The position numbers were made by a program, and so were the translations under genes. 64,000 nt of DNA from Sulfurihydrogenibium subterraneum DSM 15120 (GTDB lineage: Bacteria; Aquificota; Aquificia; Aquificales; Hydrogenothermaceae), in NCBI RefSeq assembly GCF_000619805.1, contig NZ_JHUV01000011.1, positions 62,001 through 126,000 on the forward strand, in the 5' to 3' direction. The stretch's first letter is position 1, and each line of letters begins with the position of its first letter. The notes beneath the pieces were generated by a model. That model saw only the letters and a list, made by a program, of their open reading frames with translations, was not told the origin of the DNA and did no database searches. Shown here piece after piece: positions 25,642 to 28,601 of the stretch.

Positions 25642-27045
25642 ATGTGTGGAGTATTTGGAGTTTTTAATAATAAATCGGCAGCTGAACTTACATTTTTAGG
25701 ATTACACGCATTACAACACAGAGGACAAGAATCTGCAGGTATTGCAGTATCAGATGGCTACGATATAAATTTAAGACTTGGAACAGGGTTAATAACCCAA
25801 GCAATAAAAGAAGAAGACATCAAAGAGTTAAAAGGCGATATCGCTATAGGTCATGTAAGATACTCTACAAGTGGAGGGTCTAACCCAAAAAATATCCAGC
25901 CATTTTTCGCTCACTTTTACGGAGGGCAGTTTGCAATAGCACATAACGGTAATCTGGTTAATGCGGAAAGACTGAAAAGAGAACTGGAGATGGAAGGCGC
26001 CATATTTAGGTCAACGTCAGACACGGAAGTGTTTGTCCACCTGATAGCAAAATCAAGACAACCTGCCCCACCTCACATAAACCTTCATAAAAACGACGAA
26101 GACTTTCTACCCCATGTATTTGAAGCTATGAGAAAGGTAAAAGGTGCATACTCTCTGGTTATTCTGAGAGAAAAACAGCTTATAGCCGTAAGAGACCCTT
26201 ACGGATTTAGACCACTGGTTTTAGGTAAAAACAGGAGTGGGTCTTACTTTGTTGCATCTGAAACCTGTGCTTTAGATATTGTAGATGCAGAATATTTAAG
26301 GGATATAAACCCTGGTGAAGTTATTGTAATAGATGATGCAGGAATAAGGTCTTACTATCCTTTTGAATATACGGAAAATCCAAAAAAATGTATATTTGAG
26401 TTTGTTTACTTTGCAAGACCAGACAGTAAAATATTTAAAGATTGGGTTTACAGTGTAAGAAAAGAATTTGGTAAAAGACTTGCAAAAGAGTACCCAATAG
26501 ATGCAGATTGTGTAATTCCTGTATTAGACTCAGGATTACTTGCCGCTATGGGGTACAGTGAAGAAAGTGGAATACCTTTTGAGATAGGACTTATAAGAAA
26601 CCATTACGTTGGTAGAAGTTTTATCCAACCATCACAAGAGATAAGAGATTTAAGCGTAAGATTAAAACTAAACCCTGTAAGAGACGTTATAGAAGGAAAA
26701 AGAATTATAGTGATAGATGACTCTATAGTTAGAGGTACAACCAGCAGGAAAATAGTAAATATGTTAAGAAGGGCAGGAGCAAAAGAAGTTCATATGCTTA
26801 TAAGCTCTCCTCCTGTTGTAAGTCCTTGCTACTACGGAATAGACACACCGACAAAAGAAGAATTACTCGCATCTCAAATGTCTATAGAAGAAATTAGAAA
26901 GTTTATAGGAGCTGATACACTTGGATATCTATCTTTAGAAGGTATGTTAGAAGCCGCAGACAAAACCAAGGGATACTGCACTGCATGCTTTACAGGAAAC
27001 TACCCTGTATTAGAACTAATAACTGATTTTATAGTCACTTCTTGA
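25642..27045 (+). CDS. purF: Amidophosphoribosyltransferase
   Basis: A 467-residue first enzyme of purine synthesis, transferring glutamine amide nitrogen to PRPP. The N-terminal nucleophile follows the initiator methionine directly (MCGVFGVF). RDPYGFRPL and HNGNLVN belong to the glutaminase domain. The PRPP loop VIDDSIVRGTTSRK is near residue 355. Cysteines in CIFEFVYFARPD and near the end (CTACFTGNYP) match the iron-sulfur (Bacillus-type) form. The stop codon overlaps the promoter of the TnpB locus. Confidence 0.96.
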   Translation: MCGVFGVFNNKSAAELTFLGLHALQHRGQESAGIAVSDGYDINLRLGTGLITQAIKEEDIKELKGDIAIGHVRYSTSGGSNPKNIQPFFAHFYGGQFAIAHNGNLVNAERLKRELEMEGAIFRSTSDTEVFVHLIAKSRQPAPPHINLHKNDEDFLPHVFEAMRKVKGAYSLVILREKQLIAVRDPYGFRPLVLGKNRSGSYFVASETCALDIVDAEYLRDINPGEVIVIDDAGIRSYYPFEYTENPKKCIFEFVYFARPDSKIFKDWVYSVRKEFGKRLAKEYPIDADCVIPVLDSGLLAAMGYSEESGIPFEIGLIRNHYVGRSFIQPSQEIRDLSVRLKLNPVRDVIEGKRIIVIDDSIVRGTTSRKIVNMLRRAGAKEVHMLISSPPVVSPCYYGIDTPTKEELLASQMSIEEIRKFIGADTLGYLSLEGMLEAADKTKGYCTACFTGNYPVLELITDFIVTS

Positions 27046-27070
27046 CAAATATAGAAAAATGTTTTATGTT
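27042..27070 (+). promoter_or_regulatory. Promoter of the tnpB locus, overlapping purF stop
   Basis: TTGACA (27042-27047) contains the purF stop TGA. TATGTT (27065-27070) follows after exactly 17 bases. The predicted transcript starts just before the tnpA remnant at 27078. Confidence 0.6.
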
Positions 27071-27077
27071 TACATCT

Positions 27078-27128
27078 ATGAAGCTTAGTGAGTGGGCTAA
27101 GAAAATAGAAGGTTTAAGAAAAAGATGA
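27078..27128 (+). pseudogene. Remnant of IS607 serine recombinase tnpA
   Basis: A 16-residue open frame, MKLSEWAKKIEGLRKR. The first nine residues match the start of IS607-family TnpA (MKLSEWAKK...), and the last codon overlaps tnpB by ATGA, as in intact IS607 elements. The simplest reading is an internal deletion that removed nearly all of tnpA yet kept its start codon, ribosome context and coupling to tnpB. It cannot encode a working recombinase. Confidence 0.7.
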
Positions 27129-28561
27129 AAACTAATCAAGAAATCATAGGCACTTATTTTTATCCCTGCTATGCTAACAAAGGTAAAGCTGATAAAGTAA
27201 TTCAAATAATTACTGAGTATAGGAAAACAGCCCAAAGAATTGCTAAATACTTGTGGAGTGAATTCTTTAAAACAGGAAAGTTTAGTAAATACAAAGACGT
27301 AAAGAGTATTAGGTCAAATCTTTCTGAAAGATATAAACAAACCTGTTTATGGCAAGTAATAAGCACACTAAATTCTTTTGTATCCAACATTCAGGAAAAA
27401 TTTAAAGAAATAGTGTATAATTCCACTTTACCAGAGGAAATAAAGAAAACTCTTTTTATAATCAATAAAAACAAAGCATGGTTTAGTAAAGATTTTGAGT
27501 GTAGTAGTAAAATTAAAAAACTTGCAAGAAAAATATTCAAGCACAATCTTAAACAGTATAACAAACCATCTTTTAAAAATATCAATCTGCACTTAGATAG
27601 CAAAGTTGCAGTTGTAGAACATAACAAACAAAGCAAAACTTTTGACAGATGGATAAAGTTATCAACCCTTGAAAAAGGAAAGCCTATTTATTTACCAATT
27701 AAAAATAATAGATATGCAGAAAATTTAGAAGGTGAGCTGGCTAACTTCTGTCAGATTTCAGTAGATAACAACAACATCATTGTAAAACTGATGAAAAAGT
27801 TAAAAAAGAGAAAATACCTACCAGAAACAGACACTATATCAATTGATTTAGGCTTAAACCCTCTGTTTGCAGCAAGTAAAGGGAATTTAATCGGAAGAAA
27901 CTTTATGAGTTTTCTCAAAAGAATAGATGAGAAAATCACAAAAAGGATGGCACATTTACAGAAAATAGGTATAAAACCAAAACAAGACAATAAATACAGA
28001 GAATTAGTAAGAAAATTCAGAGAGTTTTTAAAGAATGAGATAAACAGATACATAAACCGTTTGGTAGAGATATACAAACCAGCAACCATCGTTATTGAAA
28101 AATTAGACTTTAGAAACCCAGAACTTTCAAAAAGAATAAACAGGTTAATATCAAACTTTGGTAAGAGATACATAAAAGACAAATTAAACAGATTACAAGA
28201 GATTTATGGAATAAAGATAATACAAGTCAACCCAGCATACACAAGTCAGGTTTGCAGTAGCTGTGGGTACGTTGATAAGAAAAACAGAAAAGATACAAAT
28301 ACTTTTGAATGTAAAGTTTGCGGAGCAAAAATAAACGCACAGGTAAACGGTGCTAAAAACATCCTTGCAAGACGTTCTTGTGAGGATATCAAACTCCACC
28401 ACTCAAAAAAGCAAGTCCTCAGGATATTGGTAAAACGGTATCTTGAGAGACAAAAAGGGTGTTATAGTGCTCCCTTGGAAGTTATTAAGAGTAATCCATA
28501 TTTTAAGGATTATCTTGATGACTTCCTAAACCCTGCGGTGGTGGGGAATAAACGTCTATAA
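27125..28561 (+). CDS. tnpB: TnpB-type RNA-guided nuclease homologue with substituted third catalytic residue
   Basis: A 478-residue TnpB. RuvC-I is SIDLGLNP (D241) and RuvC-II is TIVIEKLDF (E325). The zinc finger uses C377, C380, C396 and C399 (CSSC...CKVC). In RuvC-III the expected Asp before VN-x-A-x-N is Gln406 (codon CAG) in KINAQVNGAKNIL. TnpB proteins cut DNA guided by an RNA from the element's right end. With D-E-Q instead of D-E-D this copy may be nuclease-deficient, or belong to a clade with a relocated acid. The C-terminal 60 residues lie over candidate guide-RNA hairpins. Confidence 0.9.
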   Translation: MKTNQEIIGTYFYPCYANKGKADKVIQIITEYRKTAQRIAKYLWSEFFKTGKFSKYKDVKSIRSNLSERYKQTCLWQVISTLNSFVSNIQEKFKEIVYNSTLPEEIKKTLFIINKNKAWFSKDFECSSKIKKLARKIFKHNLKQYNKPSFKNINLHLDSKVAVVEHNKQSKTFDRWIKLSTLEKGKPIYLPIKNNRYAENLEGELANFCQISVDNNNIIVKLMKKLKKRKYLPETDTISIDLGLNPLFAASKGNLIGRNFMSFLKRIDEKITKRMAHLQKIGIKPKQDNKYRELVRKFREFLKNEINRYINRLVEIYKPATIVIEKLDFRNPELSKRINRLISNFGKRYIKDKLNRLQEIYGIKIIQVNPAYTSQVCSSCGYVDKKNRKDTNTFECKVCGAKINAQVNGAKNILARRSCEDIKLHHSKKQVLRILVKRYLERQKGCYSAPLEVIKSNPYFKDYLDDFLNPAVVGNKRL

Positions 28562-28601
28562 ATGGGGGAACTATTAGACGAATTTTTTGAAGAGATTCAA
28601 A
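28477..28601 (+). ncRNA. Candidate omega RNA scaffold at the tnpB 3' end
   Basis: Three hairpins follow one another. First, a 20-pair stem with one bulged G (arms 28477-28497 and 28507-28526, nine-base loop). Next, CGTCTA/TAGACG (28553-28558 and 28575-28580). Last, TTTGAA-GAGA-TTCAAA (28586-28601) with a GNRA loop. Position over the tnpB end and right boundary is where omega RNAs are encoded, so a guide would start near 28602. Expression is not shown by sequence. Confidence 0.5.

What the first reader, a model, noticed from the sequence alone, without database searches (positions are those of the whole stretch)
27125..28561. TnpB with glutamine in place of the third RuvC aspartate
D241 and E325 are present, but the RuvC-III position (normally D before VN-x-A-x-N) is Q406, read directly from codon CAG. 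This could be a nuclease-dead guide-RNA binding protein, similar in idea to TnpB-derived repressors, or a member of TnpB clades in which an acid has moved elsewhere in the fold. The frame is otherwise full length and undamaged, which argues for selection.
Basis: partly seen in the sequence, partly recalled or inferred. Interest (0 to 1): 0.66.

Follow-up and report, generated by a model that had tools for sequence, protein, structure and literature searches.

The report
Transposon RNA-guided protein with altered active site
A gene-cutting protein carried by a jumping gene in hot-spring bacteria has glutamine where its relatives have a catalytic aspartate, and the same change is kept in related jumping genes in other hot-spring bacteria, their plasmids and their phages, so it looks like a selected active-site variant rather than a dead or domesticated copy.

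Summary
In detail: window 27125-28561 encodes a full-length TnpB with D241, E325 and Q406 (CAG, 28340-28342) in place of the RuvC-III aspartate. It is not a one-off. Q406 is invariant in 13 proteins from nine Aquificota genomes (two families), Thermus phages TMA and YS40_Isch and a Thermus thermophilus plasmid. All 13 keep D241 and E325 and share D328, a residue rare (8 of 86) in TnpBs with D406. dN/dS is about 0.05-0.28, and neutral simulation cannot keep these residues. The gene sits in an IS607-type element (27010-28573). The window copy has lost tnpA, but intact serine-recombinase tnpA accompanies Q-TnpB in three loci. Its 3' end encodes a guide-RNA scaffold with strong covariation. The guide is simply the flanking DNA, different in each copy; the window guide has no second target in its genome. 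So this is a conserved, mobile, guide-RNA-equipped lineage with a D-E-Q active site, not a domesticated repressor. Most likely it still has metal-dependent activity: Asn at the same position is active in Fanzor GtFz1. No cleavage was measured. New variant of a known kind.

The parts
27010..28573 (+). IS607-type element inserted in the 3' end of purF; boundaries by comparison with the empty purF-pfpI junction (core dinucleotide TA at 27008-27009 and 28572-28573; position within a 7-base overlap TATTAGA is ambiguous)
   Evidence: empty site in G001, G002, G003, G004, G005; LE/RE compared over copies
27078..27128 (+). remnant of tnpA: MKLSEWAKKIEGLRKR*, N-terminus of an IS607 serine recombinase, stop overlapping the tnpB start (ATGA)
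   Evidence: sequence; compared with intact tnpA start MKLSQWAKKLGISYKTAW in L145 and with L023, L179
27125..28561 (+). tnpB, 478 aa, with D241, E325, D328, Q406
   Evidence: AlphaFold2 model mean pLDDT 90.3, matches Cas12f/TnpB structures Z 17-19
28340..28342 (+). codon CAG = Q406 at the RuvC-III position
28362..28573 (+). guide-RNA (omega/reRNA) scaffold overlapping the 3' end of tnpB and the right end; helix 1 28362-28386, helix 2 28399-28403 with 28537-28541, helix 3 28416-28428 with 28437-28450, helix 4 28455-28463 with 28468-28476
   Evidence: 18 of 37 pairs with changes on both sides, 96.4% paired, slid controls 43-55%; synonymous constraint in aa 421-470; helices kept in phage copies not used to derive them
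28574..28593 (+). predicted guide segment: right flank of the insertion (former purF 3' end)
   Evidence: inferred from RE end and empty-site comparison; no second site within 1 mismatch in the genome

Best explanation
This is a copy of a conserved IS607-type TnpB lineage of thermophiles whose RuvC active site reads D-E-Q instead of D-E-D. Shown: the substitution, its fixation, purifying selection on the protein, a covarying guide-RNA scaffold in the 3' end of the gene, mobility of the elements, and guide positions that equal the insertion flank. Inferred: the protein still loads this RNA and uses the flank-derived guide to recognise the empty insertion site next to a GT[A/C]T-like motif, and the pocket (D241, E325, Q406, perhaps helped by D328) still binds metal and cuts nucleic acid (DNA and/or its own guide precursor), so it keeps the usual role of TnpB, retention or homing of the element. 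The window copy has lost its transposase and can move only with help from outside.
For: Q406 with D241, E325 and D328 in all 13 proteins. Neutral simulation keeps Q, D or E in all 10 leaves 0 of 20000 times at the observed synonymous rate, and 76, 10 and 27 of 20000 at a 3.5-fold lower rate. dN/dS 0.05-0.28 in the body of the gene where dS was estimable, against 0.08-0.14 in the D sister clade. Guide-RNA structure with strong covariation, confirmed on phage copies that were not used to derive it. Intact serine-recombinase tnpA next to Q-TnpB in L145, phage TMA and a Thermus plasmid. The phage TMA insertion lies cleanly in a GTAT site that is empty in phiYS40, and its predicted guide matches that site with 1 mismatch in 16. 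Literature: Fanzor GtFz1 has Asn at this position and cleaves, D606N raises SpuFz1 activity, though D-to-N does not increase activity in TnpB or Cas12 (PMC11423790); a TnpB with a rearranged RuvC-II site is active, and an intact RuvC domain is needed for guide-RNA processing (PMC10278001).
Against: No cleavage data. Gln is longer than Asn and neutral; Asn being tolerated in a Fanzor does not show that Gln works in a TnpB. D241 and E325 might be held for folding. D328 is also present in 8 of 86 D406 TnpBs, so it is no specific compensator. The tree does not settle whether Q arose once. Most Q copies lack an intact tnpA.
Confidence: 0.6

Rival explanations
1. Q-TnpB is nuclease-dead but still a guide-RNA-dependent DNA binder that serves the transposon (for example by marking or protecting the empty donor site, steering TnpA, or repressing its own element), not a host regulator.
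For: Loss of a carboxylate normally essential in RuvC; Q itself is under constraint; guide RNA conserved; naturally dead relatives such as TldR exist (PMC13418256).
Against: D241 and E325 are as constrained as Q406 although a binder would not obviously need them; a carboxamide at this site is active in a Fanzor.
Confidence: 0.28
2. A TldR-like domesticated RNA-guided repressor of a host gene.
Against: Copies lie at different loci in different species and the guide positions hold the insertion flanks, all different; no second target of the window guide within 1 mismatch, and 2-mismatch hits are at the level of the reversed control; intact IS607 transposase beside three Q copies.
Confidence: 0.04
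3. A decaying element whose RuvC site is drifting after loss of function.
For: The window element lost tnpA and the genome has no serine recombinase or Y1 transposase match; some relatives are broken (L153, L014).
Against: Full-length frames under purifying selection, Q fixed over saturated synonymous divergence, covarying RNA, intact elements elsewhere.
Confidence: 0.08

Closest known systems
IS607 TnpB (e.g. ISXfa1; PMC10711439)
   Same: TnpB beside or derived from a serine-recombinase element; guide RNA runs through the right end into flanking DNA; insertion between matching dinucleotides; TnpB with glutamate at the canonical RuvC-II position here
   Different: RuvC-III Q instead of D; core dinucleotide TA or TC rather than GG; own guide-RNA architecture, no Rfam match
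Fanzor1 GtFz1 (PMC11423790)
   Same: carboxamide residue (Asn) at the third RuvC position in an RNA-guided nuclease of the same superfamily
   Different: Asn not Gln, eukaryotic, cleavage shown there and not here
TnpB clades with RuvC-II/III catalytic rearrangements (RII-r3, RII-r5, RIII-r4; named in PMC10278001)
   Same: TnpB with a non-canonical triad in a mobile element
   Different: not known whether this lineage belongs to RIII-r4; the defining paper is not held in the library
TldR TnpB-like nuclease-dead repressors (PMC13418256)
   Same: TnpB-derived protein with an altered RuvC site and a guide RNA
   Different: many TldRs are linked to non-transposon genes and fixed host targets; this lineage is mobile with flank-derived guides

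Membership tests
TnpB (RNA-guided protein of IS200/IS605/IS607) | sequence family and domain architecture (WED/REC, RuvC, zinc ribbon) | tested here: met
   NF040570 above cut-off, PF07282, model matches TnpB 8h1j Z 18.9 and Cas12f Z 19
TnpB (RNA-guided protein of IS200/IS605/IS607) | D-E-D RuvC triad (usual, though clades with rearranged triads are also called TnpB) | tested here: not met
   D241, E325, Q406
TnpB (RNA-guided protein of IS200/IS605/IS607) | guide RNA encoded at the 3' end and right end | tested here: met
   covariation and synonymous constraint; expression not tested
TnpB (RNA-guided protein of IS200/IS605/IS607) | RNA-guided DNA cleavage | not testable with these tools
   needs biochemistry
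IS607 element | serine recombinase tnpA upstream of tnpB | tested here: inconclusive
   window copy has only a 16-codon remnant; intact in related Q elements L145, L179, L180
IS607 element | insertion between matching dinucleotides, no long duplication | tested here: met
   empty sites for window and phage TMA; core TA; 7-base overlap in the window leaves the exact point open
TldR | loss of RuvC catalysis | not testable with these tools
   one residue changed, activity unknown
TldR | stable link to a non-transposon gene and a guide against a host locus | tested here: not met
   different loci, flank-derived guides, no second genomic target of the window guide
RuvC-III rearranged TnpB clade RIII-r4 | clade membership and its specific rearrangement | not tested
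   reference sequences not available

The most novel reading that the evidence does not exclude
A whole mobile TnpB lineage of thermophiles, shared by Aquificota, Thermus and their phages, lives without the third RuvC carboxylate and serves its transposon in a changed way: either as an RNA-guided enzyme with a D-E-Q (plus D328) metal site of altered activity, such as a nickase or RNA processor, or as a non-cutting binder that helps transposition.
Probability: 0.3. Interest if true: 0.7.

Novelty: new variant of a known kind. Interest (0 to 1): 0.5.

Why it matters
It gives a natural, long-lived experiment on how much of the RuvC triad of TnpB and Cas12 is needed. If the D-E-Q site cuts, it extends the Fanzor Asn case to a prokaryotic, thermostable TnpB with Gln and would matter for engineering of compact nucleases; if it does not cut, it would be a mobile element that keeps a dead RNA-guided protein under strong selection, which the current homing model does not explain. 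The guide-RNA structure and sites needed for a direct test are defined here.

Tried and rejected
TldR-like domestication: rejected on mobility, guides and lack of a second target. Simple decay: rejected at clade level by constraint and intact relatives. IS200/IS605 (Y1) origin: no Y1 match in the genome and the tnpA remnant is of IS607 type. Rfam: no family hit for the guide RNA. Sister-clade D proteins do not share helices 2-4 of the RNA. Single origin of Q: supported with ten Aquificota proteins (84/99), unresolved after adding Thermus sequences (p-AU 0.506). The first IMG/VR scan found no relative and the second only distant ones. The deep mutational scan of ISDra2 TnpB shows its residue-level data in figures only, so the effect of Gln at this site could not be read off.

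Full report
Observation. The frame 27125-28561 is a full-length TnpB. D241 and E325 are present and the RuvC-III residue is Q406, codon CAG at 28340-28342. The AlphaFold2 model (mean pLDDT 90.3) has the complete Cas12f/TnpB architecture (AsCas12f, TnpB and related chains, Z 17-19); D241 lies in the strand 235-242, E325 at the end of strand 319-325 and Q406 at the start of helix 405-416, as expected for the three RuvC positions.

Fixation. Searching 136 Aquificota genomes found Q at this position in ten proteins from nine genomes in two families: the window, L009, L010, L014, L011, L022, L145, L146, L147 and L153. Phages TMA and YS40_Isch of Thermus (59-60% identical to the window protein) and a T. 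thermophilus plasmid (41%) also have Q. All 13 have D241, E325, D328 and P246. All other close relatives, including two in the same genome, have D406. The codon varies synonymously (CAA, CAG), and a neutral codon would not have stayed Q (or D241, E325) over this tree. The body of the gene has dN/dS 0.05-0.28 where dS could be estimated, against 0.08-0.14 in the D sister clade. So Q406 is itself under purifying selection. In the tree of Aquificota sequences Q is one group (84/99); with Thermus sequences added, the D sister clade can fall inside the Q group and a single clade is neither supported nor rejected (p-AU 0.506). A return from Q to D is therefore possible.

Element. The purF-pfpI junction is empty in G001, G002, G003, G004 and G005, which defines an insertion of about 1564 bp. 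A 16-codon remnant of an IS607 tnpA precedes tnpB, and its stop overlaps the tnpB start. No serine recombinase or Y1 transposase match is found elsewhere in this genome. In other Q copies tnpA is intact: L145, phage TMA and the Thermus plasmid. The copies sit at different places, and shortened derivatives that carry only the 3' end occur in G005 and G040. The ends show a TA or TC core: left flank GTA or GTC, right end GGGGAACTA or GGGGAACTC, GGGGGACTA in the phages. Phage TMA is inserted cleanly at GTA|T in a region that is empty in phiYS40.

Guide RNA. Synonymous change is suppressed only in the last part of the gene (aa 421-470 in the Q clade; also lower dS). Four helices between 28362 and 28541 have 96.4% standard pairs over nine sequences, with 18 of 37 pairs changed on both sides; slid controls give 43-55% paired. 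Helix 2 is paired in all nine sequences with a different sequence in most. The two phage copies, not used to derive the structure, keep helices 1 and 2 completely. The sequence after the right end, the expected guide, differs in every copy. In the window it is the former 3' end of purF; within the genome no other site matches it with fewer than two mismatches, and the two-mismatch places are at the level of the reversed control. This is the arrangement of a transposon-serving TnpB, not of a domesticated repressor.

Mechanism. In Fanzor GtFz1 the third RuvC residue is Asn, the enzyme cuts DNA, N658D lowers its activity, and D606N raises that of SpuFz1, while D-to-N does not increase activity in TnpB or Cas12 (PMC11423790). 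A TnpB with a rearranged RuvC-II site is active and RuvC is needed for guide-RNA processing (PMC10278001). Together with the constraint on D241 and E325 this makes a working D-E-Q pocket the best-supported reading (0.6). A non-cutting binder that serves the transposon remains open (0.28). D328 accompanies Q in all 13 proteins but occurs in 8 of 86 D406 relatives too, so a compensating role is a hypothesis; D288 is a second lineage-specific acid (12 of 13). Nothing here measured cleavage.

Noticed in passing
window 26990-27045: The insertion replaces the C-terminus of PurF: the end that reads ...VLDEFFEE... in relatives is now ...VLELITDFIVTS, encoded by the left end of the element.
   Followed up: partly
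L178 and L179: Thermus phages TMA and YS40_Isch each carry a Q-TnpB, at different places; TMA has a complete IS607 pair in a region whose flanks are about 98% identical to phiYS40, so the guide could act on an empty site of a co-infecting sibling phage.
   Followed up: partly
L014: The 5' end of one G003 copy appears to be replaced by DNA that looks like the end of another transposase gene; the frame lacks a normal start codon.
   Followed up: no
L018/L054, L056, L057, L043: Short derivatives keep only about the last 60 codons plus the right end, i.e. the guide-RNA region; MITE-like.
   Followed up: partly
L059 and L020: Other TnpB-like proteins of the genus (in G003 and G001) align with G or A at the RuvC-III position; unrelated to the Q lineage.
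   Followed up: no
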